From a virus, in IMG/VR virus record IMGVR_UViG_3300005563_000075, positions 1 to 32,192 of that record: a stretch of 32,192 nt of DNA; one strand, 5' to 3'. How positions within the stretch are numbered: position 1 is the stretch's first letter; each line of letters opens with the position of its first letter. Position numbers and translations under genes: made by a program. This document shows, in pieces, positions 9,842 through 28,717 of this stretch. The notes beneath the pieces were generated by a model. The model was not told the origin of the DNA. It did not search any database and worked only from the letters and a program-made list of their open reading frames with translations.

Positions 9842-9847
9842 GCACTT

Positions 9848-10257: not shown

Positions 10258-10437
10258 TCAGGGTTTGCGTTTCGGCTGAGTAAGCACGGCCGCGAAGATG
10301 ATCGCTACCAACAGGAAGCCCTCTGCAATACGCAGGGGGCTTTTCCATGCCGGGAACCATAGTTCGAGATAGCCGAGCCCGACGACGGCCGCGATGAGCG
10401 CGATGATTGGAATGTACTTTCCGGGGTTCGTAGCCAT
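10258..10437 (-). CDS. Small two-helix membrane protein, antisense to the late operon
   Basis: A 59-residue product with two hydrophobic segments, IIALIAAVVGLGYLELWF (11-28) and FLLVAIIFAAVL (41-52), and a basic tail (QPKRKP). The frame is open further upstream, but the ATG at 10437 starts the part that looks like protein. It has no Shine-Dalgarno sequence. Instead a GGTACAAT box ends 7 nt upstream, which suits a leaderless transcript. It could be a moron or lysogenic-state gene; a holin-like role is possible only by topology. Its reality is moderately supported. Confidence 0.5.
   Translation of the reverse strand: MATNPGKYIPIIALIAAVVGLGYLELWFPAWKSPLRIAEGFLLVAIIFAAVLTQPKRKP
10316..10344 (+). 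terminator. Eleven-pair hairpin with a short T-tract
   Basis: AAGCCCTCTGC (10316-10326) pairs with GCAGGGGGCTT (10332-10342), including one G-T, around AATAC. It is followed by TTTT (10341-10344). It faces the plus strand inside the minus-strand membrane gene and could limit readthrough along the late operon. Confidence 0.55.
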
Positions 10438-10444
10438 AGGTGAG

Positions 10445-10450
10445 ATTGTA
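10445..10450 (-). promoter_or_regulatory. Putative -10 box (TACAAT), leaderless arrangement
   Basis: On the minus strand GGTACAAT lies 7 nt before the ATG at 10437, which places the expected transcription start at or beside the start codon. No -35 is seen. Confidence 0.45.
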
Positions 10451-10476
10451 CCAGTTTTAGCCAGGAGAGATCTATT

Positions 10477-10935
10477 TTGCCAATCGACATCGCGGCGCTC
10501 AAAACTGAATTGCAATTGCCAGCCTATGCGCAAGCATTAGCGAACGGAGACGTGGGAACGCTCGCAGAGATGCTTAACGCCGTCTCAGACGCGATAGTGA
10601 TCCCGCGTGGGGACATCGGGCGGCAGAAGTCGATCGAGATACTCGCGCCTGTCATCATCACGCTGCTCCAGCAGACGGCCAACCCTGACCCGGTGATCTC
10701 GGGCAACGCAAAGTTCTGGCTCGGAGCCTATGACCGGCTGATCGCGCCAATCGAGATCGTGCACACGTCAGCGCTCCTCGTAATCGGCATGATGGACAAC
10801 CTGCGCGATCAGGGGTTCATGACCCAGGCGCAGCACGACGAGTTTTTAACGCGAACCGGCAGTCGCTGCGAGCAGATGTTCGGCGCTGGCGAGACCGTAA
10901 ACATGGCTGATGTGATCGAGTCGCTACGACCATGA
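10477..10935 (+). CDS. Phage protein of unknown function
   Basis: A 152-residue, mostly helical protein starting at a TTG (10477) that is 8 nt after AGGAG. The opening IDIAALKTELQLPAYAQALA and the later DRLIAPIEIVHTSALLVIG suggest a compact helical domain. I know no function. It begins a run of tightly packed genes: its stop overlaps the next ATG as ATGA (10932-10935). Position in the accessory cassette between capsid and neck genes suggests a virion or assembly role, but nothing shows this directly. Confidence 0.7.
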   Translation: MPIDIAALKTELQLPAYAQALANGDVGTLAEMLNAVSDAIVIPRGDIGRQKSIEILAPVIITLLQQTANPDPVISGNAKFWLGAYDRLIAPIEIVHTSALLVIGMMDNLRDQGFMTQAQHDEFLTRTGSRCEQMFGAGETVNMADVIESLRP

Positions 10936-11042
10936 ATGACGGAAAATGGCATACCCTAGCGATCGTTGCAGACGGCAAAAAGCGTTCGGTGTACATAGAC
11001 GGCGTTAAGCAGTCCCGACAACGTAAAGCAAGGCTAAAATGA
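10932..11042 (+). CDS. 36-residue LamG-motif micro-ORF
   Basis: The ATG at 10932 overlaps the previous stop (ATGA), and its own TGA (11040-11042) overlaps the next ATG (11039), so both ends show translational coupling. The product begins MNDGKWHTLAIVADGKKRSV and continues YIDGV before a basic tail. DGKWHTLAIVADG...YIDG is the classic strand motif of laminin-G/concanavalin-like domains. A complete domain of that type is encoded 600 nt downstream. It may be a relic of a shrunken LamG gene, or a strand-donating small protein. Confidence 0.5.
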   Translation: MNDGKWHTLAIVADGKKRSVYIDGVKQSRQRKARLK

Positions 11043-11575
11043 GCATACAAGACGATTTCAGCCTAATTAAGGGCACGGACATTGTATGGAAGTCGAGCGG
11101 CGGCGATCACGTTATTACGTGTACATCCCTGGCTGCTGGTTCGTCGCGGCTTGGAGACAAGTCGGTAACGCTGTTGGTAGCTCCTCCGGGACTGACAACT
11201 GCCATCCTGCCCGACTACCTGGAGTTCAAGCTGCTGTGCCAATTCACTTCTGCTCCAACGGCGGGCGGTGAGGTCGGTCTCTATCTCGCCTGGTCCGATA
11301 GCGCGACGGCGGGAACGAATAACCCGGCTGGAACGCTCGGGGCGGATGCGGCAGGTCCCAATGTGGACACGTTCGGGCAACTCATGTTTGTGGGCTCACT
11401 GATCGCATCGAACAACCTGGGAACTGGCGTGCAGGGGCCGGTGTCGCTGTGGGCTGTGCCGAAAGACTACTACTTCGCGCCGCTGATCTACAACAATGCG
11501 AGCGTGGCTTTCGACGCGACGGCGCTCCATACCGTTCTGACTTGCACGCCTTGGTATAGGGTGAGGTCCACGTAA
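11039..11575 (+). CDS. Putative virion structural protein
   Basis: A 178-residue, beta-rich protein (MSIQDDFSLIKGTDIVWKSS). A repeated jelly-roll-like pattern includes LEFKLLCQFTSAPTAGGEVG and LYLAWSDSATAGTNNPAG. It has no signal peptide or membrane segment. The ATG overlaps the preceding stop, and the next gene starts immediately after its TAA. The neighbours have LamG-like folds, so this may be a surface decoration or appendage protein of the virion. No named family is recognised. Confidence 0.7.
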   Translation: MSIQDDFSLIKGTDIVWKSSGGDHVITCTSLAAGSSRLGDKSVTLLVAPPGLTTAILPDYLEFKLLCQFTSAPTAGGEVGLYLAWSDSATAGTNNPAGTLGADAAGPNVDTFGQLMFVGSLIASNNLGTGVQGPVSLWAVPKDYYFAPLIYNNASVAFDATALHTVLTCTPWYRVRST

Positions 11576-12427
11576 TTGACGCGAGTAATCCCGCTATGTA
11601 ACGGGTTTGTGGACCCCGCCTGCCCGATCAATTGGGACCATCCGCTGAATTACGGGCTTGTTGCGGACTGGACGGTTACCCCCAATCCGGGATGGCGTGG
11701 CGGCTTGGCACTTCGGGATTTAGTAAGAGGTGGCAAGAACCCAAACGACGGAACTCGCACAAATGGGCCAACATGGATCAGCGGCGGACGACCGGGTGGA
11801 TTTGGGGCGTTGCGGGGTAATGGGACGAATACGCGTGTCGTGATAGGCACGGCAACCGCTTTACAGTTAACATCGGCGTTCAGTGTATCGGGATGGCTTC
11901 GCACAACAAACACCGGAACGAAAGTGCTGGTGGGTTTCTATAATCCGGCAGCCGGAAGCGGTTTTGGGCTAGCTATTGGTGTCAATGCCGCAGGGAAGCC
12001 CGACTTTTATGACGGAGTTGGCTGGAGAGGATGCTCCAGCACTATCAATAGCGGCACATGGAGGCACCTGGCGGCCGTGTATACAGGCGCAGCGGTCAGT
12101 TTTTACATCGATGCGGCTTTGGTCAACAGTCCTGCGGCCAGCACGGTCACAGCGTACAGCGGTTCAAAATCACTACTAGCGAATGCAGACGGTTCAAACT
12201 TCTTTTGGGCCGACGATGCGGATGCGATCGCGTTTCACAACCGCGCCCTGACCGCACAAGATGTCCAGGCGTTCTACCTCGAAACTAAGGCTGGCAACCC
12301 GACCCGCTGGAACTGGGCCGATACGGGGCGGCGCGTGTGGGCGGTGAGCGCGGCACCCGTCATTATTCAGCCTTATGAGTTTGTGCAAAGTTTACCAGTA
12401 GATACAATTGTGCGCTATCCGTATTAG
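11576..12427 (+). CDS. LamG/concanavalin A-like domain protein
   Basis: A 283-residue protein using a TTG start directly after the preceding TAA. GGTGAGG-type purines lie 8-15 nt upstream. The N-terminal part (PLNYGLVADWTVTPNPGWRG) leads into a Laminin_G_3-type beta sandwich: FSVSGWLRTTN, then SGTWRHLAAVYTGAAVSFYI, then DAIAFHNRALTAQDVQAFY. The last motif is typical of the end of LamG domains. Such domains bind sugars or other surface ligands. In a phage this suggests attachment to a host surface, by the tail or by capsid-borne fibres. The C-terminal 45 residues are a short extra module. Confidence 0.82.
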   Translation: MTRVIPLCNGFVDPACPINWDHPLNYGLVADWTVTPNPGWRGGLALRDLVRGGKNPNDGTRTNGPTWISGGRPGGFGALRGNGTNTRVVIGTATALQLTSAFSVSGWLRTTNTGTKVLVGFYNPAAGSGFGLAIGVNAAGKPDFYDGVGWRGCSSTINSGTWRHLAAVYTGAAVSFYIDAALVNSPAASTVTAYSGSKSLLANADGSNFFWADDADAIAFHNRALTAQDVQAFYLETKAGNPTRWNWADTGRRVWAVSAAPVIIQPYEFVQSLPVDTIVRYPY

Positions 12428-12439
12428 GAGGCATTCGAC

Positions 12440-12895
12440 ATGGGACGAGTTTATAAAGCGCCTTGGAACGCGACGAATACGCAGAGCACTACGGTGCCGA
12501 TTATGACACTGACAGGCTCGGCGGCGATTCGCGTGGCGCTGAAAGAGTACACGATCGGGTCGGATGCCACGCCTGCGAATATGGCCGCGACTTACCTCAT
12601 TCGGCGACACTCCACGGCGCCCGCTGGCGGTACCGCGATTACGCCGAAGCCCAAGGACAGCGCAGATCCGGCCTGCGTCGCGACTGCGATGATGGGGCCA
12701 TCGATCGGAGCGCCGACGCTGGGCGATACGCTGGACCAGCTCCCACTCAACCAGAACAGCTCGTTCCGGTGGGTCGCGGATGATGGACGCGGGTTCGTCG
12801 TGCCAGCGACGGCCAATAACGGACTGTCGCTGCTTCCGATCGTCGTCAATGGTTCGGCGGTGAATGTCGTGGGCATGTGGAGTTTTGAGGAGTGA
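12440..12895 (+). CDS. Putative virion protein, unknown function
   Basis: A 151-residue protein (MGRVYKAPWNATNTQSTTVP) of mixed beta/loop character with many small residues, ending MWSFEE. AGGAGG lies 9 nt before the ATG. It has no Cys pairs beyond one residue, no membrane segment and no enzymatic motif that I can see. It is coupled by a 12-nt gap to the LamG gene and likely shares its role in the virion. No family is recognised. Confidence 0.7.
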   Translation: MGRVYKAPWNATNTQSTTVPIMTLTGSAAIRVALKEYTIGSDATPANMAATYLIRRHSTAPAGGTAITPKPKDSADPACVATAMMGPSIGAPTLGDTLDQLPLNQNSSFRWVADDGRGFVVPATANNGLSLLPIVVNGSAVNVVGMWSFEE

Positions 12896-12965
12896 TGCCG
12901 CATCCGCCCGTATTTTGCTAACTATTCGGCGCTCGTGACGGCGCTGAGTGACCAAGGGAGAGCGA

Positions 12966-13175
12966 ATGGAAAGAGTAACGCGCATCATCATGGCGAAGGA
13001 TCATCGGAGCGAGGAGAGCCCTGGCACGGATGAGTTCCACATCAGCCTGTGGTTTGACGACGTGAAAGAGGACGGCGAGGTGGTCTCAAAGCACCGGCGT
13101 AAGGATATGCCAGCGGAATCTACGCTTGCCGACATCCTGGCCGAGATCCCGAACTACGAGAGCTGGGCTGAGTAG
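12966..13175 (+). CDS. Small conserved-looking protein, unknown
   Basis: A 69-residue protein from the ATG at 12966, which has AAGGGAGAG just upstream; a GTG at 12948 would add six residues that lie on the ribosome site. It is acidic with a beta-strand start (MERVTRIIMAKDH) and DEFHISLWFDDVKEDGEVVS. No family is recognised. The next gene begins with the base after its TAG. Confidence 0.65.
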   Translation: MERVTRIIMAKDHRSEESPGTDEFHISLWFDDVKEDGEVVSKHRRKDMPAESTLADILAEIPNYESWAE

Positions 13176-13475
13176 GTGGCGATTGAGATCATCGTAGCGA
13201 CGCGGTACACGGATCCTTATGCGGGCGCGAAGTTCGAGCGTAAAGCGCATGGGATGATCATTCGGGACGGCAAGGAGATCGCTTCGACTCTACAGTGCCC
13301 GCATTGCAACGCGCATTTCGTTTCGATGGCTGGCAGTGGCATAAAGCGTTCGTGGTGCCCGAACTGCAACGCGGTGACCTGCGGAAAGAAAGAGTGCGTA
13401 GAGCGGTGCGAGCCCTGGGAGCGGCGCATGGAAGCCATCGAGCGTAAGGCCACGCAGGCACTAAGGGGGCTGTAG
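13176..13475 (+). CDS. Zinc-ribbon-like small protein
   Basis: A 99-residue protein with a GTG start directly after the preceding stop. It carries CPHC (about 42-45), CPNC (61-64), then CGKKEC and a further Cys (CEPWERR). The two CxxC pairs 19 residues apart form a classic zinc ribbon. The N-terminal half is beta-like (AIEIIVATRYTDPYAGAKFE) and the C-terminus is a charged helix. It may bind nucleic acid or be structural in the virion; nothing decides this. Confidence 0.72.
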   Translation: MAIEIIVATRYTDPYAGAKFERKAHGMIIRDGKEIASTLQCPHCNAHFVSMAGSGIKRSWCPNCNAVTCGKKECVERCEPWERRMEAIERKATQALRGL

Positions 13476-13478
13476 TCG

Positions 13479-13886
13479 ATGAAGATCAAGCCACATCACC
13501 GGCGCGACTTCTCGTTCTATCTGCAATTCGCTCGACGCAACAAAGTATTTGACCCGGAACCGCGTCCGGTCCAATTGCTTTCAAAAGGCGACGCGAACGC
13601 CTTGCAATGCTTTGTGCAGCACGAGTCTCAGAAGGACAAGCCTAAGACCTGCCGACAGCCCAGGGTCTTCGAAGAGGTTCAGCGCGGCAAGAGGCTCGTG
13701 AATTTCCACATCAAGCAGTGGGCGCGAGACTGGCCGGAGGCACTCGGCGGAACATTCGGGTTGGAGCAGGTGAAGGATGAATTCTTAGCCGAAGGGCTAT
13801 ATGTACCCGATTGGGTTTGGCAAGCGGTCTGCAACCAGGGGCGTAGAGGAATGCGCGAGCGGTGGCGGGAGATGAGGGGACTGTAG
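13479..13886 (+). CDS. Basic phage protein, unknown function
   Basis: A 135-residue, strongly basic, aromatic-rich protein (MKIKPHHRRDFSFYLQFARR and RGMRERWREMRGL at the end). It has a central Lys/Gln-rich stretch (HESQKDKPKTCRQPRVFEE). The ATG is 3 nt after the preceding stop. The charge suggests contact with DNA or RNA, but no domain is recognised. Confidence 0.62.
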   Translation: MKIKPHHRRDFSFYLQFARRNKVFDPEPRPVQLLSKGDANALQCFVQHESQKDKPKTCRQPRVFEEVQRGKRLVNFHIKQWARDWPEALGGTFGLEQVKDEFLAEGLYVPDWVWQAVCNQGRRGMRERWREMRGL

Positions 13887-13889
13887 TTC

Positions 13890-15116
13890 GTGACGAATGC
13901 CTCCTGGAATGGATTTGGCTCCGCCAATTTCGTCAACAGCGCGCAAATTGCGGGCGGGACCGGCGGTCGCACGTTCATCGACGGTATCGTGACCGACCGG
14001 AGTCTGCAAGCTGGAAGTCTACTTGGATGCAGCTACATGTGCCACGTCAGTGGCGCGAGCGGTTTCAAATTCAAAGTATTTCGGCCTAATGGCAGCAATT
14101 GGGACTTTGTTGGTGAAAGCGAGAAGTTCACTCCTATCGCTGGGGACACGGTACAGAGCCGAACCTTCGCAAATCCGATTACGGGCGTCCGAATAGGCGA
14201 TGTTTTCGGAATGTGGATCGACATCGACGCGGGCGGCGCTGGGCCCGCGTTAGATTGCTCCGCGGTGGTGGCCAGCGCAGCCATCCACTGGATTGCCGGA
14301 GATGAGACCGGCACAAACGTCACTTTCCCAAGCGCCAACGATATCAGTAACTTTGCGTTGAACATCGAGGCATTCGGTGCGCAGCCCACAGCAGGGACCA
14401 CCGGCGACTCGATCGAGGTTGGGCACGGAGGCACGTTTACTTCGTTCCTCGACGGCACCGGACCTTCTACAGGCGCCGACGGCGCGCCGCTGTGTGAACT
14501 CGGCTACAACATGAAGTCGCTCATTGGCGGCAACTGGAACTACCAGGACTTCGCCAAGGGCAGTCAGACGTTCGCCTGGGTGCTATCGAGTGGCGTCCCG
14601 GCAATCATGACAGCCTCCGGCACTCATTGTTCAGTTGCGTGCGGGGCGACCGAGCTATGGGTCCATTGTGGGATAAACGACATCTTTACCGGGCGCACCA
14701 ATGCCGCTATGCTTGCGGATCTCGATAGCATCCGGGCCTTGTGGGGCACGGCTAATTTCATGGGGATCGACGAAGTCCTTCCGGACACGAACTTCACGGA
14801 TCTTCAGGCGGCGGCCATTCGAAGCTGGAATACTGCGCTCGCTGGATGGGGGGCAGGCAAAGGGAACGTCAGGATCGTTTCGTGCTGGGACGCATTCGGC
14901 CAGACGCGCGTCTCGACCGGTCAAAAAGATGACCTGAAGAGCATTTATAACAGTGGCGACGGAGTACATATCAATGCGACGGGCGCGGCGGCGCTGGCGG
15001 GTCTGCGGAAGGCAGTCAGAGACAATTACTTTGGGCTAACCCCCTCCCTTATCGCCGTCCCGTCTTCACAAGGCGTTCGGATGGCTTCGGACGCGCCTAA
15101 GATGGTAGCTTACTGA
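13890..15116 (+). CDS. SGNH-family hydrolase (tail or capsid esterase)
   Basis: A 408-residue protein starting with GTG at 13890. Residues 1-160 form a beta-rich virion-type domain (FVNSAQIAGGTGGRTFIDG). Residues about 168-375 are an SGNH/GDSL hydrolase: GDS with S174 as nucleophile, HCGIND with N263 as oxyanion-hole residue, and DGVHINATG with D357 and H360 completing the triad. This family removes acyl groups from sugars, peptidoglycan or lipids. In phages such enzymes can deacetylate host surface polysaccharide during adsorption. The neighbouring LamG-like gene fits a binding partner. The next gene overlaps by TGATG. Confidence 0.85.
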   Translation: MTNASWNGFGSANFVNSAQIAGGTGGRTFIDGIVTDRSLQAGSLLGCSYMCHVSGASGFKFKVFRPNGSNWDFVGESEKFTPIAGDTVQSRTFANPITGVRIGDVFGMWIDIDAGGAGPALDCSAVVASAAIHWIAGDETGTNVTFPSANDISNFALNIEAFGAQPTAGTTGDSIEVGHGGTFTSFLDGTGPSTGADGAPLCELGYNMKSLIGGNWNYQDFAKGSQTFAWVLSSGVPAIMTASGTHCSVACGATELWVHCGINDIFTGRTNAAMLADLDSIRALWGTANFMGIDEVLPDTNFTDLQAAAIRSWNTALAGWGAGKGNVRIVSCWDAFGQTRVSTGQKDDLKSIYNSGDGVHINATGAAALAGLRKAVRDNYFGLTPSLIAVPSSQGVRMASDAPKMVAY

Positions 15117-16060
15117 TGGCGAACCTTATCTGGCAGTATCAGGCGTTCGCGGTCCCGGCGGCGATCATCGCGTCCACTGCGATCATTCAGCCGCCGGCCG
15201 TGTCCGAGCCGCCCATGCCGAAGGCGGCTGTTCGGCAGCTCACCGAGGCCATTATCCCGGCTGGGATCGTTCCGACGATCATTCAGCCGCCGGCCGTTAC
15301 CGAGCACCTTTTTGTTCGGCCCCAGTTCAGGCAACTCACCGAGACCATTACGCCGGCCGGGATTGTGCAGACCATTCTGCCGCCCGCTGTCTCGGAGCCG
15401 CCCGCGCTCAGGCTGACGTTCCGCTCGCTCACCGAGCTGATCAAGCCCGCCGCGCTGATCTCGACGCCAGCGACGGTGATACAGCCGCCAACGGTCAGTG
15501 AGCACATCTTTGTACGGCCGCAGTTCAGGCAGCTTACAGGCTCGATCGATCCGGCTCCGATCATTCCGACGATCCTTGGCGGCGGCTCGATCTCAGACAC
15601 CGTTCTGCCGCAGCTGAGGACGATCCAATATCAGGCGTACGCGAGACCTGCGAGCATCATCGCTACGGCTCTCATCCAGCCGCCGCAGGTGTTCTGGCCC
15701 GACGTTGCCCGGGCCAGGATCGTTCAGCCCGACTATTCGATCCATGCGGCGCTGATCCCGGCCGTGATCCTGCCGCCAAGCGTTACGAGTTGGCAGCCGC
15801 CCTTCCAGAAGCCGGTCCAGCCTGACTACTCGGTGACGGCGAGAATCGTTGTCGTTGCGCCGTTCATTCAGCCGCCTGAGATATCAGCGTTCATCGCGCC
15901 GCCGAAGCTGCTTCCGAAGGTGCGAAGCGAGATCATCATTCCGGCGCAGATCGTGCTGACACAGCCGCAGTCGCCGACCTTCGGAAGGCTCTCAGGGCGT
16001 GGCGATGGCGTGCGGAAGTCTGGCCATGGGGACCGTGTGCGGAAGTCCGGAGGGATGTAG
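15116..16060 (+). CDS. Proline-rich tandem-repeat protein
   Basis: A 314-residue protein with three to four repeats of about 32-36 residues. The common pattern is PAGIVPTIIQPPAVTEH, then an FVRPQFRQLTETI-type segment. Further looser QPP/PAxI units run to residue 290, and the C-terminus is Gly/Arg/Lys-rich (GRGDGVRKSGHGDRVRKSGG). The regularity suggests an extended fibrous structural protein. The ATG overlaps the hydrolase stop (TGATG), and its own stop overlaps the next GTG (TAGTG). No family is recognised. Repeats in DNA run from about 15181 to 15575. Confidence 0.75.
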   Translation: MANLIWQYQAFAVPAAIIASTAIIQPPAVSEPPMPKAAVRQLTEAIIPAGIVPTIIQPPAVTEHLFVRPQFRQLTETITPAGIVQTILPPAVSEPPALRLTFRSLTELIKPAALISTPATVIQPPTVSEHIFVRPQFRQLTGSIDPAPIIPTILGGGSISDTVLPQLRTIQYQAYARPASIIATALIQPPQVFWPDVARARIVQPDYSIHAALIPAVILPPSVTSWQPPFQKPVQPDYSVTARIVVVAPFIQPPEISAFIAPPKLLPKVRSEIIIPAQIVLTQPQSPTFGRLSGRGDGVRKSGHGDRVRKSGGM

Positions 16061-16425
16061 TGGCAGACGGCAGCGCAGATCCAATGCGGCGAAAGGAGCG
16101 ACGGCGTATCATTGCGACGCTCTCTCCGGAACAGCCCGGCCCGGACGGCCTTCCGGTGACGCTGACCATCGCGGCCGTGACCCTGACGATTAAGACCCGG
16201 CCCGCGGTTGGGGTTGGAACGGTGGTCGGCAGTGCGGATATTCCAGCGGATGGCTTCACGAGTGGGGCCAGCATCGAGCCTGAGGCCTGGTACCGCGTGC
16301 AGCCTACCGATCTGCCGCTGCCGGTCGGGAAGTACTCCGCGACCTTCGTGATCGACTGCACCAACGGGGATCGGTATGAGCCGGTGGTGGATTTCGAAGT
16401 GATCGCGGATGATGACAGCCCGTAG
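16060..16425 (+). CDS. Ig-like/baseplate-type small structural protein
   Basis: A 121-residue protein starting with GTG at 16060, with GGAGGGA before it. After a basic start (MRRKERRRIIATLS) come beta strands (VTLTIAAVTLTIKTRPAVGV, YSATFVIDCTNGDRY, VVDFEVIADDD). The pattern is that of a single beta-sandwich domain such as those in BppU-like or Ig-like phage proteins. The assignment is by general pattern only. It closes the accessory cassette; a palindromic repeat follows one base after its stop. Confidence 0.65.
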   Translation: MADGSADPMRRKERRRIIATLSPEQPGPDGLPVTLTIAAVTLTIKTRPAVGVGTVVGSADIPADGFTSGASIEPEAWYRVQPTDLPLPVGKYSATFVIDCTNGDRYEPVVDFEVIADDDSP

Positions 16426-16567
16426 GGATTGTCTCGCGCAAAAGCCGCAAAAACGCAAAGAAATGCATAGAAGGGAAGTTGGCGAATTGGCGAATTTCCC
16501 TTTTGCGCTTTTGCGTGCTTTGCGCGAGGCAATCCCTGATCTGCGTTCATCTGCGTAATCTGCGAAT
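16426..16567. repeat. Long palindromic dispersed repeat, copy 2
   Basis: GGATTGTCTCGCGCAAA (16426-16442) pairs with TTTGCGCGAGGCAATCC (16519-16535), with only one G-T pair. The interior is nearly the same as copy 1 at 9848-10005, including CGCAAAGAAATGCATA and TTTCCCTTTTGCGC. After the hairpin come three ATCTGCG units (16536-16566). The last bases provide an ATG (16566) in frame with the next gene. Confidence 0.88.
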
Positions 16568-16586
16568 GAAGTTCTGGAGAAGAGCG

Positions 16587-17144
16587 TTGCCATATTCGGA
16601 TGCGGCGAACTGGGTGCGGGATCTGCTGGGTAAGGATCGAACCGAGATCTCGGATGAGCGGCTTGTGAAGTGGTTTGACAGCGCTGTGACCAAGATCGCG
16701 GCGGCCTGGACTTCGCTTCCTGCTTACAGCGACCTGGCGGCTTCAGATGTGCCGCTGGTGGATGAGGCGCTCGGCTTCTTCGTCGCGGCTGTGATGCGGC
16801 CATTCCTGACCAAGGAAGAGGCGGTCACCGATCTGATCCGGTACCACACGCTCAACACGCATACGCAGTTCGCCAATCCGACACCTGAAAAGAAGACGAT
16901 CACGGAGCGCTGGATCGATCACGCTTACGAAGTGATGAGCCGCGTCAGCGCGATTGCGAGCGATCTTTCGGATTTGCGGGCGGTGTCGCTCTTCCAGGCG
17001 AGCGGTCCCAGGCGGGCTCAGGAGGCGCGCGGCGTGAACTCGCACGCGCTGGTGAACCCGCTGTGGACGGTTCTGGTAGACGAATGGGCGTACGAGCGAG
17101 ATCACCCAAGTATGTTTTGGTACACAGGATTTCTTCCGAATTGA
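16587..17144 (+). CDS. Head-tail connector (neck) protein, putative
   Basis: A helical protein of about 185 residues. A TTG at 16587 with GGAG 7 nt upstream is the preferred start; the ATG at 16566 lies in the dispersed repeat and has no ribosome site. The first part (YSDAANWVRDLLGKDRTEIS) resembles the helical head-completion/connector proteins that sit under the portal. The gene begins the neck module, followed by a putative adaptor, head closure, gp10-like and tail terminator genes, so position is the main support. The TnpB insertion follows directly after its stop. Confidence 0.65.
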   Translation: MPYSDAANWVRDLLGKDRTEISDERLVKWFDSAVTKIAAAWTSLPAYSDLAASDVPLVDEALGFFVAAVMRPFLTKEEAVTDLIRYHTLNTHTQFANPTPEKKTITERWIDHAYEVMSRVSAIASDLSDLRAVSLFQASGPRRAQEARGVNSHALVNPLWTVLVDEWAYERDHPSMFWYTGFLPN

Positions 17145-17209
17145 TTGCGACGAATGGGACTGTAATCGACTTCGATCAATTTATGAACGAAGCCTTGACA
17201 TTCCAATTC

Positions 17210-18307
17210 CTACAGAGCTAACTGCAGGCGGACATCTTTAGGCGAGATTACATTCGCCCGTGCTTCGATGTTAATAGCCGCATTAATATCGGCATTAACT
17301 TCGAAGCCGCACTTCTGACATACAAACTTTGACTGGCTCCGTCGGTTACCTTTATCGCAGTGCCCGCAGGAGGAGCATGTGCGAGACGTGTTTCGGGGAT
17401 CGACCAAAACTACTGGCAATCCAACGTCTTGGGCTTTGTAAGTAATACACCGACGAAGGTGAGCGAAAGCCCAGCAATTCAATGCCCAGCGTGCTTCACG
17501 GGCCCAACTGTGATCTCGCTCCAATATCCCGTCCAGGGATTCTAGTGCGATTGCCTTCCCCGTGGTCAATGCTCGTGCAACTAACAGCTTAGATACGCAA
17601 TGGTTTACGTGGTGGCAAAAGCGAGTTACCTTGTGGCGAATGGCTCTCAGTCGCCGCATAGCACTTTTCTTGCCGTGAGATTCGAGCGTTTTACGCAATT
17701 GACGATATCTCCGGCGACAGGACTTCACGCGTTCGCCGGAATACTGATTTCCTAGACTGTCCGTGGCTATTTCCGCGATACCAAGATCAACGCCCAGAGT
17801 GCCTTTAGTCTGAATTGGCGGCGGGTCGGCTTTTCGGATGGAGAGGGCCAAAGTGAATTGCCCTCCGTCATAAAGCAACTCAACCTGACCGATATCGGGC
17901 TTAGATGCGAGATGTCGCCGTTGGTATGATCCGCAATCTAACCGGATGGTATGGCGGCTATCAAGCAAACGCATCGAGACGGAAGTAACGCCCTGAAGTC
18001 GCAATATTCTGGAATCAAAGTACGTCGCTGAGTAAGGCCCGAAAACATGTCGGGTTGATTTATCCGAGGAGTACGATGCGCAAACCTTGCTGATAGCGAG
18101 AATAGCAAACTCGGAAGCCAGGGAGAATTTCTCGCGGGCCTCATAATAGCAGAGAGTGTGCAAAGGAATTCTCTTATATGCCTTTCGCTGGAAAGCAATT
18201 CCGCTCATCCAGTCACACGCAGCGTTGAACTGCTGCATGGTCTCCAAGAGAAGCGGGATTTGTTCTTCCGTAGGTAACATTTTGATCTTGAGAACTCTCA
18301 CTAACAT
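17210..18307 (-). CDS. tnpB: TnpB, RNA-guided nuclease of an IS605-family element
   Basis: A 365-residue protein of normal length. The RuvC residues appear complete: D174 in GVDLGIAE, E256 in AIALESLDG and D340 in EVNADINAAIN. The zinc ribbon is C311-C314 (CSSC) and C330-C333 (CQKC). TnpB uses an RNA from the element's end to cut donor sites and favour retention of the element. The ATG at 18307 lies 6 nt after a TATAAT box, so the mRNA may have no leader. The open frame extends upstream to 18877 but runs into phage genes and is not used. With no TnpA, movement would need help in trans. Confidence 0.93.
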   Translation of the reverse strand: MLVRVLKIKMLPTEEQIPLLLETMQQFNAACDWMSGIAFQRKAYKRIPLHTLCYYEAREKFSLASEFAILAISKVCASYSSDKSTRHVFGPYSATYFDSRILRLQGVTSVSMRLLDSRHTIRLDCGSYQRRHLASKPDIGQVELLYDGGQFTLALSIRKADPPPIQTKGTLGVDLGIAEIATDSLGNQYSGERVKSCRRRYRQLRKTLESHGKKSAMRRLRAIRHKVTRFCHHVNHCVSKLLVARALTTGKAIALESLDGILERDHSWAREARWALNCWAFAHLRRCITYKAQDVGLPVVLVDPRNTSRTCSSCGHCDKGNRRSQSKFVCQKCGFEVNADINAAINIEARANVISPKDVRLQLAL

Positions 18308-18313
18308 AGCAAT

Positions 18314-18319
18314 ATTATA
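18314..18319 (-). promoter_or_regulatory. TATAAT -10 box of tnpB, leaderless arrangement
   Basis: On the minus strand GGTATAAT lies 6 nt before the tnpB ATG. Transcription would begin at or beside the A of the start codon. No -35 match is seen at 16-18 nt. Confidence 0.6.
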
Positions 18320-18349
18320 CCCTATTGCCGCTCGTTTTTGGAGCATCTC

Positions 18350-18718: not shown

Positions 18719-18728
18719 GAGGCCCGAC

Positions 18729-19133: not shown

Positions 19134-19178
19134 GGGTTAGGGATTAGGGGTTAGGGGTTAGGGATTAGGGATTAGGGG
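19131..19178 (+). repeat. Telomere-like heptamer repeat (TAGGGRT)
   Basis: Nearly seven units of TAGGGGT or TAGGGAT run without interruption. The first TAG is the stop codon of the closure gene. Seven G-runs of 3-4 could form a G-quadruplex in DNA or mRNA. The array runs into a terminator-like hairpin. Confidence 0.9.
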
Positions 19179-19205
19179 ACTGCCGCTGGGCGGTCCTTTT
19201 TCTTT
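19177..19205 (+). terminator. Hairpin with U-tract after the heptamer repeat
   Basis: GGACTGCC (19177-19184) pairs with GGCGGTCC (19189-19196) over eight pairs around GCTG. It is followed by TTTTTCTTTGG. The next gene starts 24 nt later. Confidence 0.8.
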
Positions 19206-19228
19206 GGCGCGAAGGAAGGATCGATCAC

Positions 19229-19723: not shown

Positions 19724-19728
19724 GGGCT

Positions 19729-20615: not shown

Positions 20616-20644
20616 TGATTGACCGCGGATAACTGATTTGTCAG

Positions 20645-20673
20645 GGGTTGCCTACGGGCAGTCCTTTTTCTTT
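20645..20673 (+). terminator. Hairpin with U-tract before the tail-tube gene
   Basis: GGGTTGCC pairs with GGCAGTCC (20645-20652 with 20657-20664, two G-T pairs) around TACG. It is followed by TTTTTCTTTG, the same 3' tail as at 6250 and 19197. The Shine-Dalgarno sequence of the next gene follows. Confidence 0.72.
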
Positions 20674-20690
20674 GCGAGGGAGTTAAGGAC

Positions 20691-21059: not shown

Positions 21060-21068
21060 GGGGAATGA

Positions 21069-21587
21069 ATGCCGTTCAGCGCAGATGAGCTTATAGATCG
21101 ATTCGAAGAGACCGAGTCGACCTTTCGTATACCGACTTCGGATGATCCCGAGCAGGATCTAATCTGCAAGGTCATCTCAGACGTCCGCGAGATGACGCAG
21201 GTCCGATTGAAGGCGCAAAGCCTGCTGAAGTCCTGGAATGCCAAGACGGTTCTTCCGGAGTGGCTTCCGTATGGGCCGATCACGCAGGATGTCGCTTCCA
21301 TCGTCGCGACACTGACCCTTGTCGTATTGGAGCCGAAGTTCACCGACCTTCAGGCGCTGAAGCTCTGCAAGAAGGCGGGGCCAGCGGCGGCGCAATTTTA
21401 CGCTGACATCCTGCGACACACGGGGCGAAACATGCCGCAGCGTGAGATGGACGCTATGGAAGCGGAAAAAAACGGCTTAAGTCCGATTGGCTCTACCGAA
21501 TCTACCTCTCAATCGGACACGAATATCTCCGAAAGCATCCCGACGACTTCAGCGATACCGACTGGGAGCGAGCCCGAGAGTACGTAG
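21069..21587 (+). CDS. Tail assembly chaperone, zero-frame product (gpG-like)
   Basis: A 172-residue, mostly helical acidic protein. DPEQDLICKVISDVREMTQV and LEPKFTDLQALKLCKKAGPA precede a low-complexity Ser/Thr/Glu tail. The order tube, chaperone, tape measure is canonical. Chaperones of this type hold the tape measure protein while the tail tube is built. A slippery heptamer near the end allows a longer frameshift product. Confidence 0.8.
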   Translation: MPFSADELIDRFEETESTFRIPTSDDPEQDLICKVISDVREMTQVRLKAQSLLKSWNAKTVLPEWLPYGPITQDVASIVATLTLVVLEPKFTDLQALKLCKKAGPAAAQFYADILRHTGRNMPQREMDAMEAEKNGLSPIGSTESTSQSDTNISESIPTTSAIPTGSEPEST

Positions 21588-21628
21588 GGCTGCGGATGCT
21601 CGAACACGAGGAAGCAGATGAGGGCTAG
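21069..21628 (+). CDS. Tail assembly chaperone, -1 frameshift product (gpGT-like)
   Basis: A -1 slip at 21467-21473 joins the first 135 codons to a 51-codon extension ending at the TAG 21626-21628. The extension reads RLKSDWLYRIYLSIGHEYLR and later DWERAREYVGLRMLEHEEAD, a plausible helical domain. The equivalent lambda product gpGT forms a complex with the tube and tape measure proteins. The frame, the heptamer and the downstream open frame are all seen; the frequency of slippage is unknown. Confidence 0.78.
21467..21473 (+). promoter_or_regulatory. Slippery heptamer A-AAA-AAC for -1 frameshift
   Basis: In the zero frame the codons read GAA AAA AAC, so the heptamer is in the correct register for tandem -1 slippage. 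It is one of the most efficient slippery sequences known. A run of seven A lies at 21466-21472. Confidence 0.85.
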
Positions 21629-21906
21629 AGCCGCCACTGGTTGCCGCAGTCGGCACATTCGCGGTAGCTGCCGATAAGCCTTCGATTCGGCAGAAACGAT
21701 GCGACGATTCCAAGGATCACTCCGGCAGCGATCATTAGCCATCCGATCCCGAAAAGCAGCATTGGAATTCCAACTATGAACAGGATGATTGAGGCGGCGC
21801 CCATCTTCCATCCCGTGTTATGCTTCTCTTCTTCGTTACGGACGCGGACCGCGCGGCTCTGGCAGTGCGGGCAGATCCCGTGCATGGCGGGCGGAAGTGG
21901 CTGCAT
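21625..21906 (-). CDS. Zinc-ribbon membrane protein, antisense in the tail module
   Basis: A 93-residue protein with split Cys pairs, CPHC (12-15) and CADC (about 84-87), flanking two hydrophobic segments (AASIILFIVGIPMLLFGIG and WLMIAAGVILGIVASFL). A strong ribosome site AAAGGAG lies 5 nt before the ATG at 21906. The stop overlaps that of the frameshifted chaperone, so the two genes converge with no spacer. This is probably a moron-like gene inserted between chaperone and tape measure; its function is unknown. Confidence 0.7.
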   Translation of the reverse strand: MQPLPPAMHGICPHCQSRAVRVRNEEEKHNTGWKMGAASIILFIVGIPMLLFGIGWLMIAAGVILGIVASFLPNRRLIGSYRECADCGNQWRL

Positions 21907-21965
21907 GGCGTCTCCTTTCGCACGGTAATTCTTCGCTCAGGTTCCAAATCCTTCTGGGGCACAGT

Positions 21966-23618: not shown

Positions 23619-23666
23619 CTTGATTGAGTGACAGGCTCCTTAGGGAGCTCTTCCTGAAGAGGACCT

Positions 23667-25919
23667 ATGACGAGTGCGCTATCGGTTCGGATCGATGTTG
23701 CGGAACCTCGCGTCAGTCGTGATCCGATCGTGGCGCTATGTGACGGCAAGCATTGGGATCTGGGCAAAAGCACCTGTTTTATCGACGGCATCACCCGAAC
23801 GGCCATGCTGGCGCCTCTGCGCTATACTGCAGCCTGGGACACGACGACCACCGGCCTTTACTACCGGCTGCACAAAACTGATTACACCTTCGTCACCATG
23901 CCATTCGTGGCAGTTGGGACGCCGCCGCCTTATCCTGCCGGGACAGCCACCGATCAGAGCAAATGGGTCGAACATCATAGTCCTTACCAGGGCAATGTCT
24001 ACCTGCAGTCTCAGGGCGTTAATGATACGGCGGTCACGAACGCCCGATACCACAAGAATCAGCCGTTCCATCTCTCGTGGTTTTCATACAATCCTGGACA
24101 GCAGTCGATTGTTCAGATGGAGTGCGGATGGCTCTCGGAAAAGGCCTTTATCGCATTGAGGATCTGGACCGATGGCAAGACCGAGATTTACAAGAACGGG
24201 ACGTTCGTCGGAGAAGGCAATATCTTTGAACGCCATGTGACTTCGCAGACTGTCTATGGTAAGGAGCGCGACAGCTACCGGCAGCCGAAAGCCGCCAAGG
24301 GGGATTCCAGGCAGCTCGCTCAGCAGATTATCGAGTTGACGATGATCCCATGCAGGCGCCGGGACCTGCTTTTGCTCAGTAACCAGGGCGGCGGATTTCG
24401 CTTCACGTTTGAAGACCTGGACCCGGACGATCCGGACAACACGATCACTCCGGGGAATGCTCAGTTCATCTGGCGAGTTCCGCAGGGTCAAGTTTCCGTC
24501 TTGTGCGCGCCGGTGAACTTCGCAACATCCGGAGACCTCTACTCGATTATTAGCGCACCAAGGCAGCCACTGACCGCTGATGATGTGGCGACCTATACCG
24601 CCTATTTCGATGAGCCAGGTTACGGAGACAGCCTGGATTACTTTGTGGAGTTGGTTGATCCCAACGACCTGGCTACGCCGTTTGCGCCGGATGGTGTGAA
24701 AAACCAATTTCGGCTGCATGTGAGCCTTTCGGGCGCCGGGAACGGCTCCTTGTGGCTGTATGGCGCCTCCGCGGTCTATGATGCGATCATCGAAAACACC
24801 GATGGCAGCAATGTCGTCGACATCGTGCCGTATATCGTATCTGCGGATTTGAGCGTCCCTGAATCTCCGTCCGATGTGCTGATGAAGACGACGTGCCGCA
24901 GTCCGGATGAGCTCGGGACGGGCCTTGCGTTCCCGGAAACGGTCAGTAATCGACCTTGCCAGATCTCAATCGACGGATTTACGATCCTGACAGGCCGGAT
25001 GAAGCCGGTCGGCGGACGCGATGGCCCTGATGACCGGTCCTCACGCATCATGCAGGAATATCGCGACTTCTGCAAGGCACAAGAGGAGTACCGCATTACC
25101 AACGCGGTGCCGGTCGACGGCTTTGAGTTTGCAAAAGGCTTCAAGTACTTCGCTCAGCTTCCAGGCTTCTCGGATAGTATGATGGATGTGCCCGACCTCG
25201 GCTTCAATTTGCCGACGATCGGGCAGACCAGTGAGGGCGAATTCGCGCTGCTTCCGAAAGAGGGCGACAAGGCCCTTGAGTGGATGAAGAAACTCTGGGA
25301 GATGTTTGCACAGCACACGCAGTGGGGCTGGATACCGACCATCCTGGGACCCATCCTGCAGATGCGATCGATCGACTTCCTGGAAGCGGACGCGCCGCAA
25401 CTGACGCTCTATGCCAGGATTGAAGATGCAGTGAACGCCGGGTTCAGTCGTTCCGAGGCGGTCCATTACGTTTACCGGACGCTCGAGCCTAGCTCGATCG
25501 AGTGCGAGGCCAACGATATCCAGGTTCGGGGACGCGACCCCCGTACCGGCAAAGTGTTCATGGTGCGCTATGTCGATAAGGACAGCGTTAACCCGACGTT
25601 GCCGGCGGCACAGCGTCCGGCGAACTGGCTGGGTGAATCACGCATCTATGAGCTCATCAATTCTGCAATCACTTCTAGGCCTGCAGCGACCTGGTCAGCG
25701 GCGACGATCGCCCGACGTGTTACTCCCGCAAGGCGGATCTATCCGTTCGAATGCGATATGCTGTTTCGAGACGATGGCGCTCCAGTGTGGCGAGGTCACA
25801 AGGTAACGCTCGACGGGATCGGCGATGTGAAGATCAATACATTCACCACTAATTTCGAGCTGATGGATGATGTGAAGTTCTGGGCGCCCTCCCACTACAC
25901 CGGAGAATTCATCGGATAG
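23667..25919 (+). CDS. Tail hub / distal tail-associated protein
   Basis: A 750-residue protein directly after the tape measure, where distal tail and hub proteins lie. The N-terminal 350 residues are beta-rich; the stretch HLSWFSYNPGQQSIVQMECG with IALRIWTDGKTEIYKNGTFV resembles a concanavalin-like sandwich. From about residue 380 come hub-like segments (VDIVPYIVSADLSVPESPSD, FTILTGRMKPVGGRD), and the C-terminal part has PFECDMLFRDDGAPVWRGHK and TLDGIGDVKINTFTTNFELM. A baseplate-hub type fold is likely. The ATG has AAGAGG upstream. Confidence 0.72.
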   Translation: MTSALSVRIDVAEPRVSRDPIVALCDGKHWDLGKSTCFIDGITRTAMLAPLRYTAAWDTTTTGLYYRLHKTDYTFVTMPFVAVGTPPPYPAGTATDQSKWVEHHSPYQGNVYLQSQGVNDTAVTNARYHKNQPFHLSWFSYNPGQQSIVQMECGWLSEKAFIALRIWTDGKTEIYKNGTFVGEGNIFERHVTSQTVYGKERDSYRQPKAAKGDSRQLAQQIIELTMIPCRRRDLLLLSNQGGGFRFTFEDLDPDDPDNTITPGNAQFIWRVPQGQVSVLCAPVNFATSGDLYSIISAPRQPLTADDVATYTAYFDEPGYGDSLDYFVELVDPNDLATPFAPDGVKNQFRLHVSLSGAGNGSLWLYGASAVYDAIIENTDGSNVVDIVPYIVSADLSVPESPSDVLMKTTCRSPDELGTGLAFPETVSNRPCQISIDGFTILTGRMKPVGGRDGPDDRSSRIMQEYRDFCKAQEEYRITNAVPVDGFEFAKGFKYFAQLPGFSDSMMDVPDLGFNLPTIGQTSEGEFALLPKEGDKALEWMKKLWEMFAQHTQWGWIPTILGPILQMRSIDFLEADAPQLTLYARIEDAVNAGFSRSEAVHYVYRTLEPSSIECEANDIQVRGRDPRTGKVFMVRYVDKDSVNPTLPAAQRPANWLGESRIYELINSAITSRPAATWSAATIARRVTPARRIYPFECDMLFRDDGAPVWRGHKVTLDGIGDVKINTFTTNFELMDDVKFWAPSHYTGEFIG

Positions 25920-25929
25920 GAGCCGCGTT

Positions 25930-26163
25930 ATGCCAGTCATGAGGCACGGCGTTTCAGTCGAAAGTCAGAAGCAGATCGCGGAGCAGCGGCGGCAAGGGAA
26001 GCGCGTCTTGAGTCCGGAAGCCGAAGGGATGGCAGATATCCCGCCCGAAACGGTGGACCTGATCAATCCGGATGACGGCACGGGCGGCCAGACGCCTATG
26101 TTTGTCTTGGGTCTCCACGATCCGTTCGATACCAACCATCCTACGATGTTTCCGGGGGGATAA
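25930..26163 (+). CDS. Small tail-region protein, unknown
   Basis: A 77-residue protein (MPVMRHGVSVESQKQIAEQR). It has a charged helical start, then a Pro/Asp-rich extended end (DIPPETVDLINPDDGTGG). GGAG lies before the ATG. The next gene starts at the base after its TAA. No family is recognised; it is probably a minor tail component. Confidence 0.62.
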   Translation: MPVMRHGVSVESQKQIAEQRRQGKRVLSPEAEGMADIPPETVDLINPDDGTGGQTPMFVLGLHDPFDTNHPTMFPGG

Positions 26164-28320
26164 GTGGGTCAACTACCTTTTGCTGTGGTCTGTGGCTTGC
26201 CGACGCCTGTCATGCCGATGTGCGGGGCCGGGTTTCACACGGAGTTCGACAAGGACGGCTCTGGGGTCGCGATCGAATACAGCGCGACAGCTATCTTCAG
26301 CCCGTGCAAGTCGCCTGTCGTCGATAGCCTTGGACCTCCACCGTCTGATTGGTCGCCTTCGAGGATCGTTCAAGGCTTGTTCGGGACGCGCGGCGACGCG
26401 GCGCATCCGTTCATCGTGAACCCAGGCTCTTTGCCATTGCCTCCGCACTGCTACGGTTGGGACGGTTCGAGCGACTATAACACACAGACTTACTATTCGT
26501 TCCGAAATACCCTGCTCCAGGTTGTAGATGACGGTATCGAGTTCGCGTCAATCTCCGTAAAGAGCATTCAGGTAACTGTCGATTATGACGTGCGACTGCA
26601 GCGAACATTCGACCAGCGCAAGCTCGTGTTCTCGCGACCGAATTTTTTGAGCAGCTTCGATTTCACGACGCCTGACAGCGACACCTGTACCAACCTGAGC
26701 AACTCGGATGTGACCACGCATCATAGCGAGGTAGTTTATTTCAATGGTGGGCAATACGGCAGTGGGAATTGGAACAGTATCGAGCTTGGCGACTTGTCTA
26801 ACGCGTTCAAGCAGTCCGATGGCACTTTTCTAACGAGTTACGCATGGCACCACAACCAGCACAAGGACAGCAGGTATCTTGACCCCAACTTCGTGAGCGA
26901 TGCGATCCCGCCTGACGGACGGTGGGGCCGGTTCAGTTTCGCGCAGAACCCGTCGAATGGCCTTGAGATGTGGGCCATTTATAAGTTCGGGCAGGAGATT
27001 CAGACGGTCTTCAATGTGCGATTCACGGTGAATGTCAGTTGGGTGCAGTTTCACTGTGTGCCGGACGATACGGGCGGGGGCGGCCCGTGTAACTGCAATG
27101 GAGATTGCCCGCCGTGTACGGGATCGATGCCCTCGATCGGTTCTGGACGGTGCGCGACGATCTGCGCGAACTCCGGCTCGGCTGACAGTCTTGTGCTGGG
27201 CTGGACCATCAAGGACGGCAGCGGCCATGTAGTCGCGTCCAACGATAGTCTGAACGGCTGGGGGTTTTCGATCGTAAACACCTGCGCGTTCCGGATCTGC
27301 GTGCCGTGTATCACTCAGGCGCAGCTGCTTGCGAATAACTACGAGGGGCCGTTTACGGTCGTATGGGGCAGTGGGCAGCCGTGCGTTTGCGACGGCACCA
27401 CGCACTACAAGATCTATAGCGGGTCGTTTTCGGTTGTGGCCGATGTGATCTGCGACCAGATCATCACACCAAAGCCTGGCGTGACGGTCTCTTACGATGT
27501 CTCAGACGCGCGGCGGCACGTGAGGGCCTTCACGACGCTGAAGACCGATGGCGTGACTTACGATAAGGTGCACGTGGGATTGGCGAGCAATGTGATCCCG
27601 CTCGACTGGAAGGACATCACCACAGACATCGTAGCGAAGCGCTTTTGTATCCGCTGGGACCGGCAGAGCAGTGGCAGCACGCTCTACGCTCTGGCAGAGG
27701 GCGTGAACATCCAGGGCGGGGATCAGCGAGCCGGACAGATCCATCTGTACCAGAGCGACAAGGAAGGGCAGTCGTGGGATTATAAGTTCCGAGTCGATGA
27801 GGGCAGCGCGCCTAACACGCGACCGGTCCTGCTGATCGCTCGCGACGGCCGCAGGTTCTGCTTCTGGTTTCAGCTTGGACAGGCCGGAGTCAATGGCTAC
27901 ATCCTGCAGAAAGTCTATGACGCGGCCTGGAATGTCGTTCAGCCGACGACGAAGATTTTCCTCGCTGAGGATGATGATTTCAACGTCGATGAGTTCGTCG
28001 GGCGGAACGGGGAGTGGTCACTGCCGGCGTTCTATACGGCTTCGGGCGCGCATCTGCATCCGACGGGCTTTGTCGGGCGCGACGGCCGCAAGTTCTACTA
28101 CTTCGTTTCCAGCGCCAGGATTCAGTATTACATCCTCGACGGGGCCGGGAATTCGATCCAGGGAACGCGAGTGATCACAAGCCTGGGGACGGTGGATGAT
28201 GCGCAGATTGCGGTAGATGAGACCATCGCGCAGGACGGAACCTGGTACGTAACGCTCATCTATCGATCGAATGGCCAGATCGTGACGCGGAGCAGCAAGG
28301 ACGGGATTACTTTTGCTTAG
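26164..28320 (+). CDS. Tail tip protein with Cys-rich core and Asp-box (BNR) repeats
   Basis: A 718-residue protein starting with GTG. Residues 1-295 are a beta-rich tail domain. Residues about 298-430 are unusually rich in Cys (PCNCNGDCPPCTG, GRCATICANSG, CAFRICVPC, CVCDG), suggesting metal sites or disulfides. The C-terminal 280 residues look like a sialidase-type beta-propeller, with Asp-box-like motifs SDKEGQSW (about 530-537) and SSKDGITF at the very end. Such propellers bind or cleave glycans. A receptor-binding role at the tail tip is likely; catalytic residues are not evident. Confidence 0.7.
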   Translation: MGQLPFAVVCGLPTPVMPMCGAGFHTEFDKDGSGVAIEYSATAIFSPCKSPVVDSLGPPPSDWSPSRIVQGLFGTRGDAAHPFIVNPGSLPLPPHCYGWDGSSDYNTQTYYSFRNTLLQVVDDGIEFASISVKSIQVTVDYDVRLQRTFDQRKLVFSRPNFLSSFDFTTPDSDTCTNLSNSDVTTHHSEVVYFNGGQYGSGNWNSIELGDLSNAFKQSDGTFLTSYAWHHNQHKDSRYLDPNFVSDAIPPDGRWGRFSFAQNPSNGLEMWAIYKFGQEIQTVFNVRFTVNVSWVQFHCVPDDTGGGGPCNCNGDCPPCTGSMPSIGSGRCATICANSGSADSLVLGWTIKDGSGHVVASNDSLNGWGFSIVNTCAFRICVPCITQAQLLANNYEGPFTVVWGSGQPCVCDGTTHYKIYSGSFSVVADVICDQIITPKPGVTVSYDVSDARRHVRAFTTLKTDGVTYDKVHVGLASNVIPLDWKDITTDIVAKRFCIRWDRQSSGSTLYALAEGVNIQGGDQRAGQIHLYQSDKEGQSWDYKFRVDEGSAPNTRPVLLIARDGRRFCFWFQLGQAGVNGYILQKVYDAAWNVVQPTTKIFLAEDDDFNVDEFVGRNGEWSLPAFYTASGAHLHPTGFVGRDGRKFYYFVSSARIQYYILDGAGNSIQGTRVITSLGTVDDAQIAVDETIAQDGTWYVTLIYRSNGQIVTRSSKDGITFA

Positions 28321-28328
28321 GGCTTTCT

Positions 28329-28357
28329 CCACAAATTACACAGATTTCCACAGATGC
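28329..28357 (+). repeat. Dispersed ACACAGAT-type repeat fragment
   Basis: CCACAAATTACACAGATT and TCCACAGATG form an imperfect tandem of the same CAGATT type seen in the outer arms at 9848-9887. It overlaps the 3' end of the next minus-strand gene. Confidence 0.6.
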
Positions 28358-28656
28358 AGTGGGGAACCCGTAACAAAGACCTTCAATATTCCGGGCGCTT
28401 CAATTTCGACGCGGCTAATCAGGACGATTTCACCGTCGATGGAAGCATGCTCACCGAGCATGTTTGCGGCAATGATAGCGTCTTTCTCGGAGCAGATGAG
28501 GCACCTGGATTCTCTGTCCCACTTGACGCGCAGAGTCGGGACCGAGAGTTCTTCGCAGTGACCATCTTGACGGACCTTAACCGGTCGCATAGTTTGGCCG
28601 ACCTCGGATAATCGCTTCGCGGTGGCAGATTTCATCAAGTCTTTGAGTGTTCTCAT
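28336..28656 (-). CDS. Unknown antisense protein, leaderless arrangement
   Basis: A 106-residue product (MRTLKDLMKSATAKRLSEVG). It has a well-formed middle part (LSVPTLRVKWDRESRCLICS, then HASIDGEIVLISRVEIEAPG). The plus-strand frame over the same bases looks less protein-like. There is no Shine-Dalgarno sequence, but GGTATCAT ends 6 nt before the ATG at 28656. The last codons (SPLHLWKSV) come from the dispersed repeat. No family is recognised. It could be a small regulator or moron product. Confidence 0.5.
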   Translation of the reverse strand: MRTLKDLMKSATAKRLSEVGQTMRPVKVRQDGHCEELSVPTLRVKWDRESRCLICSEKDAIIAANMLGEHASIDGEIVLISRVEIEAPGILKVFVTGSPLHLWKSV

Positions 28657-28662
28657 AACCGA

Positions 28663-28668
28663 ATGATA
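28663..28668 (-). promoter_or_regulatory. Putative -10 box (TATCAT), leaderless arrangement
   Basis: On the minus strand GGTATCAT lies 6 nt before the ATG at 28656, matching the arrangement at 10445 and 18314. Confidence 0.45.
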
Positions 28669-28676
28669 CCTGATGC

Positions 28677-28706
28677 GACCGCCTTTGAGGGGCGGTCTTT
28701 TGTTTG
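28677..28706 (+). terminator. Hairpin with U-tract before the fibre gene
   Basis: GACCGCC (28677-28683) pairs perfectly with GGCGGTC (28691-28697) around a 7-nt loop. It is followed by TTTTGTTTG. The fibre ATG is at 28718. Confidence 0.8.
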
Positions 28707-28717
28707 CCTAAAGCCCT

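What the first reader, a model, noticed from the sequence alone, without database searches (positions are those of the whole stretch)
10258..28668. Antisense genes sharing GGTAYMAT boxes 6-7 nt before ATG
Three minus-strand genes set in the late operon (59-aa membrane protein, tnpB, 106-aa unknown) have GGTACAAT, GGTATAAT and GGTATCAT ending 7, 6 and 6 nt before ATG and no ribosome site. This predicts leaderless transcripts from -35-independent promoters. They would be expressed independently of the late operon, perhaps in the lysogen, as cargo genes. The common layout also hints at a leaderless-tolerant host.
Basis: partly seen in the sequence, partly recalled or inferred. Interest (0 to 1): 0.75.

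Follow-up and report, generated by a model that had tools for sequence, protein, structure and literature searches.

The report
Antisense phage genes with built-in promoters
A phage carries small extra genes on the strand opposite its virion genes, three of which have a promoter box sitting right against the start codon, so they probably make messages without a leader; this is a real but fairly ordinary case of independently expressed phage cargo genes.

Summary
GGTAYMAT occurs three times in the window, always on the minus strand and always 7, 6 or 6 nt before the ATG of the three named genes (0.04 expected). With the motif fixed in advance (at least 5/6 TATAAT, 6-7 nt before ATG), 3 of 3 has probability about 2e-8; no plus-strand ATG (0 of 553) has it. 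It is best read as a -10 box without a recognisable -35, giving leaderless mRNAs. tnpB is the firmest case: 20 of 36 distinct homologues have -35/-10 boxes with the -10 ending 5-8 nt before the start (2 expected). The layout thus belongs partly to the transposon and is no clean sign of a leaderless-tolerant host; the host is unknown. The genes look like cargo: each fills a gap in the plus-strand operon, and a related phage (capsid 71% identical) gives no match to them. That relative has its own antisense HNH gene with GGTATAAT 37 nt upstream plus a Shine-Dalgarno leader, so the box is a promoter, not a start signal. Expression in a lysogen is untested.

The parts
10258..10437 (-). Antisense gene 1: 59-aa protein with two predicted membrane stretches, probable accessory membrane protein
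   Evidence: Codon score 0.138 in frame against antisense-frame mean -0.27, sd 0.18, max 0.046; fills the plus-strand gap 10258-10476; no family or homologue
10445..10452 (-). GGTACAAT, -10-type box ending 7 nt before ATG; TGG at -15 to -13 (extended -10)
10314..10346 (+). Plus-strand terminator-like hairpin (GCCCTCTGC-AATAC-GCAGGGGGC then TTTTCC) inside antisense gene 1
   Evidence: -22.5 kcal/mol, z -5.7
17210..18307 (-). Antisense gene 2: TnpB, 365 aa, RuvC D/E/D positions and zinc finger present
   Evidence: PF07282 7e-23, PF01385 2e-7; NF040570 8e-47; aligned to solved Cas12f/TnpB chains
18314..18321 (-). GGTATAAT, consensus -10 box ending 6 nt before ATG
   Evidence: layout conserved in homologues
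28336..28656 (-). Antisense gene 3: 106-aa protein of unknown family, GC 52%
   Evidence: Fills the plus-strand gap 28321-28717; weak codon support (-0.033, one plus frame 0.018); no homologue
28663..28670 (-). GGTATCAT, -10-type box ending 6 nt before ATG
28677..28697 (+). Plus-strand terminator-like hairpin with TTTTGTTT tail just upstream of antisense promoter 3
21625..21906 (-).
   Evidence: Codon score 0.10; in the plus-strand gap 21588-21965

Best explanation
These are accessory (moron-like) genes that entered a phage late operon in the opposite orientation. Each of the three carries its own sigma-70-type -10 promoter, GG-TATAAT-like, without a recognisable -35 (G at -14 suggests extended -10 recognition). 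The -10 box lies 6-7 nt before ATG, so transcription should start at or within about a base of the A of ATG, and the mRNA should be translated leaderless. They can thus be transcribed by host polymerase when the plus-strand late operon is silent. One is a TnpB whose homologues conserve the same -10-to-ATG spacing. Shown: boxes, spacing, gene order, lack of matches in the related phage, conservation in tnpB homologues. Inferred: actual transcription starts, leaderless translation, timing and function.
For: Three of three boxes against 0.04 expected and p about 2e-8. All three genes fill plus-strand gaps. Codon usage supports gene 1; genes 2 and 3 have GC 51-52% against 59%. 20 of 36 distinct tnpB homologues have -35 and -10 boxes with the -10 ending 5-8 nt before the start, shuffled mean 2.05, maximum 7. 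In the related phage L068 (capsid 71%, portal 57%) the connector gene that precedes tnpB in the window is followed after 6 nt by the next plus-strand gene, and no antisense gene of the window has a significant match. L068 has its own antisense HNH gene with GGTATAAT 37 nt upstream; 8 GGTAYMAT boxes against 2.4 expected, five of them 19-61 nt before a reading frame. Literature: TANNNT about 12 bp upstream marks leaderless bacterial genes (PMC3160421); the -10 motif next to the ORF works as a promoter in Deinococcus-Thermus (PMC12340547); an antisense accessory locus with its own promoter in ST64B (PMC7067206).
Against: No RNA data. Host unknown. The 106-aa gene has weak coding support and no homologue. 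Antisense gene 4 and the relative's HNH gene are led by Shine-Dalgarno sites, so leaderless starts are not a rule. Only one related phage was found, and beyond the connector gene its proteins are not alignable to the window's.
Confidence: 0.72

Rival explanations
1. The shared layout reflects the host: a bacterium in which many genes are leaderless, so any gene expressed outside the operon looks like this.
For: Average leaderless fractions are 13% in Acidobacteria, 19% in Actinobacteria and 39% in Deinococcus-Thermus (PMC3160421). Two of the three genes are not transposon genes.
Against: Most plus-strand genes have Shine-Dalgarno motifs; antisense gene 4 does too. tnpB carries the layout in many phyla. 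Host not identified; Granulicella plasmids show no excess of the pattern over the reversed control, a weak test.
Confidence: 0.3
2. The boxes are promoters of antisense RNAs that damp the late genes or exclude superinfecting phages, and the short ORFs are incidental.
For: No minus-strand terminator was seen downstream of genes 1 and 3 by inspection, so transcripts would run antisense into late genes; an antisense RNA acting in superinfection exclusion is known in BTP1 (PMC7067206). The 106-aa ORF has weak codon support.
Against: tnpB is an intact gene and gene 1 has good codon usage. The ATG sits at the leaderless position in all three.
Confidence: 0.12
3. The boxes are sites of a phage regulator or phage-encoded sigma factor rather than host sigma-70 promoters.
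For: No -35; the boxes recur in the related phage before portal, HNH and other genes, and one pair forms an inverted repeat GGTATAATCTCCT/AGGAGATTATACC.
Against: The sequence is 5-6/6 TATAAT and needs no special factor; the GG preference is weak (3 against 1.3 and 8 against 5.2 expected).
Confidence: 0.1
4. Chance alignment picked out by the reader.
For: The motif was chosen after the fact; TANNNT-N6,7-ATG as such is not enriched in the window (15 against 12 expected).
Against: A motif fixed beforehand still gives 2e-8 for 3 of 3; independent conservation in tnpB homologues.
Confidence: 0.04

Closest known systems
Prophage accessory (moron) loci antisense to lytic genes, e.g. ST64B STMMW_20121 (PMC7067206)
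   Same: Gene set opposite to phage lytic genes, with its own promoter
   Different: Here three promoters abut the ATG; expression and temperate lifestyle are not shown
Leaderless genes with TANNNT about 12 bp upstream, the -10-motif of Deinococcus-Thermus (PMC3160421, PMC12340547)
   Same: -10 box 6-7 nt from ATG, no Shine-Dalgarno site, no -35 needed
   Different: Found on antisense cargo of a phage with unknown host; virion genes of the same phage are mostly Shine-Dalgarno-led
Lambda cI from PRM and paaR2 of a cryptic O157 prophage, leaderless prophage genes (PMC8630535)
   Same: Leaderless mRNAs of phage genes transcribed outside the lytic programme
   Different: Those are regulators in the immunity region (paaR2 with a mapped start); these are cargo genes in the late region
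IS200/IS605-type TnpB (OMEGA RNA-guided nuclease)
   Same: Family models, RuvC residues and zinc finger match
   Different: No tnpA partner seen; left end, right end, guide RNA and target motif not defined; lacks the TTGAC -35 of many homologues

Membership tests
Leaderless (-10-adjacent) genes | TANNNT -10 box 5-8 nt before start codon | tested here: met
Leaderless (-10-adjacent) genes | No Shine-Dalgarno site at the usual distance | tested here: met
Leaderless (-10-adjacent) genes | Transcription start at the A of ATG | not testable with these tools
   no RNA data for this phage
Prophage moron / accessory locus | Extra gene absent from relatives, within a conserved gene order | tested here: met
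   tnpB junction: in L068 the connector gene is followed after 6 nt by the next plus-strand gene; no matches to antisense genes 1-4 in L068 (E <= 1 apart from one chance hit of 17 residues) or the other viral loci. One relative only; genes 1, 3 and 4 lie where gene order cannot be compared
Prophage moron / accessory locus | Own promoter | tested here: met
   by sequence only; activity not tested
Prophage moron / accessory locus | Own terminator in the direction of the gene | tested here: not met
   the terminator-like hairpins in the gaps favour the plus strand
Prophage moron / accessory locus | Expressed during lysogeny | not testable with these tools
   no integrase or repressor identified in the window; no RNA data
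TnpB (IS200/IS605) | RuvC D-E-D residues and zinc finger | tested here: met
   alignment to a solved Cas12f chain, Pfam and NCBIfam
TnpB (IS200/IS605) | Transposon ends and guide RNA | tested here: inconclusive
   the 3' region folds moderately (z -2.1); no family match in Rfam

The most novel reading that the evidence does not exclude
This phage lineage uses a -35-less GG-TAYMAT promoter class for unrelated antisense cargo genes, and selects leaderless mRNAs so that the cargo is transcribed and translated by a route separate from the Shine-Dalgarno-led late operon, for instance when initiation factors or polymerase are altered during infection or stress.
Probability: 0.15. Interest if true: 0.6.

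Novelty: new member of a known kind. Interest (0 to 1): 0.38.

Why it matters
It gives a sequence rule (minus-strand gene in a gap of a late operon, TATAAT-like box 6-7 nt before ATG, no Shine-Dalgarno site) for picking out accessory genes in uncultured phages without RNA data. It also suggests that a subfamily of bacterial tnpB genes is expressed leaderless from a promoter abutting the ORF, which bears on how TnpB dose and guide-RNA supply are balanced.

Tried and rejected
Fourth leaderless candidate 9749-10009(-): rejected, it lies in a repeat present twice in the window (9841-10006, 16431-16575). TTGAC as the transposon target motif supplying the -35: dropped, homologous sequence continues upstream of it in several copies, so it is more likely an internal -35. 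Host identification: single-protein scans of viral contigs, phage and plasmid searches, and the repeat search gave no host. Pattern counts in plasmids and in genomes of the phylum of one TnpB-bearing genome: little or no enrichment, not gene-start aware. Structure of the 106-aa protein without an alignment: pLDDT 51, not used. Portal-alignment scan returned only the same relative.

Full report
What is there. The window is an IMG/VR virus record of 32,192 bases, 59% GC. Its plus strand is a late operon: small and large terminase subunits (985, 1448), portal (2871), lambda gpE-like capsid (6766), then tail genes.

The boxes. GGTAYMAT occurs nowhere else in the window; 1.5 are expected anywhere and 0.04 at that distance from an ATG. 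Because the motif was chosen after seeing the sequence, I repeated the test with one fixed from the literature, at least 5/6 TATAAT at 6-7 nt: p per ATG 0.0029, three of three 2e-8; none of 553 plus-strand ATGs has it. No -35 better than 3/6. No Shine-Dalgarno site, whereas most plus-strand genes have such a motif.

Are the genes real? tnpB certainly: family models and the RuvC and zinc-finger residues. The 59-aa ORF scores 0.138 in codon usage, above every antisense frame of the plus genes (maximum 0.046), though one antisense ORF inside a gene reaches 0.15. The 106-aa ORF is less certain (-0.033, and one plus frame scores 0.018). Neither small protein has a homologue in the libraries and collections searched.

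A fourth antisense gene. A scan of all minus-strand ORFs turned up 21625-21906, 93 aa, with two cysteine pairs around a hydrophobic stretch, in another plus-strand gap. It has AAAGGAG before its ATG. So antisense genes here are not all leaderless.

tnpB homologues. In 36 distinct upstream regions of homologues from chromosomes, plasmids and phages, 14 have at least 5/6 TATAAT at 5-8 nt before the start (1.6 expected) and 20 have a -10 of at least 4/6 with a -35 of at least 4/6 (2.05 expected, maximum 7 in 2,000 shuffles). Homologues share ancestry, so the shuffles overstate independence, but the identities to the window protein are mostly 33-42%. Some homologues (Bacillus, Geobacillus) have Shine-Dalgarno-like sites instead. 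The layout is thus a property of this tnpB group and cannot by itself point to the host.

The relative. One related phage, IMGVR_UViG_3300015202_000026 (L068/L148), has capsid 71% and portal 57% identical. Its connector gene, homologous to 16566-17144, is followed after 6 nt by the next plus-strand gene, where the window has tnpB. No antisense gene of the window matches it significantly. It has its own antisense gene, an HNH endonuclease, with GGTATAAT 37 nt upstream and a Shine-Dalgarno leader. It holds eight GGTAYMAT boxes against 2.4 expected; five lie 19-61 nt before a reading frame, including the portal gene. This argues that the box is a promoter element and that its closeness to ATG is a separate feature.

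Mechanism. Best reading: host polymerase recognises an extended -10-like promoter and starts at or next to the ATG; ribosomes load on the 5' AUG. Expression would not need the late promoter. Terminator-like hairpins on the plus strand lie in two of the gaps (10314-10346 and 28677-28697); they might shield the antisense promoters from read-through when the late operon is idle, and be overridden later. That last point is inference.

Known background. Leaderless genes marked by TANNNT about 12 bp upstream are common in several phyla (PMC3160421); the -10 motif next to the ORF drives expression in Deinococcus-Thermus (PMC12340547); lambda cI and paaR2 are leaderless prophage genes (PMC8630535); an antisense accessory locus with its own promoter is known (PMC7067206). 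I found no paper on leaderless bacterial tnpB, after limited searches.

Verdict. A real pattern, mostly rightly read, ordinary in kind. Open: transcription starts, host, lysogeny, function of the small proteins.

Noticed in passing
21625-21906 (-): Fourth antisense gene, 93 aa, zinc-ribbon cysteine pairs around two membrane stretches, Shine-Dalgarno-led.
   Followed up: partly
9841-10006 and 16431-16575: Two copies of a MITE-like palindromic repeat (ATCCGCAGATTACGCAGAT..., CGCAAAAGCCGCAAAA...). They lie inside and at the end of a block (about 8.4-16.5 kb) that is missing in the related phage between the same two genes.
   Followed up: partly
761-833 (+): tRNA-like gene with anticodon loop CTCATAA and an unusual T loop (GGCAGAG); found by Rfam (41 bits), missed by ARAGORN.
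   Followed up: partly
19174-19199 and 20643-20666 (+): Two similar terminator-like hairpins with TTTTTCTTTG tails (31 nt, 81% identical) before genes of the late operon.
   Followed up: no
L148 6424-6465 (relative phage): Divergent GGTATAATCTCCT / AGGAGATTATACC inverted repeat upstream of a 615-aa minus-strand gene; possible operator or twin promoter.
   Followed up: no
985 (+): Small terminase gene, first of the operon, has no Shine-Dalgarno site and follows a strong T-tailed hairpin (911-942); TAACCT lies 5 nt before its ATG.
   Followed up: no
tnpB homologues, L003, L013-L057: Recurrent TTGACA-N17-TATAWT-N7-ATG: apparent leaderless start of a tnpB subfamily across genomes.
   Followed up: yes
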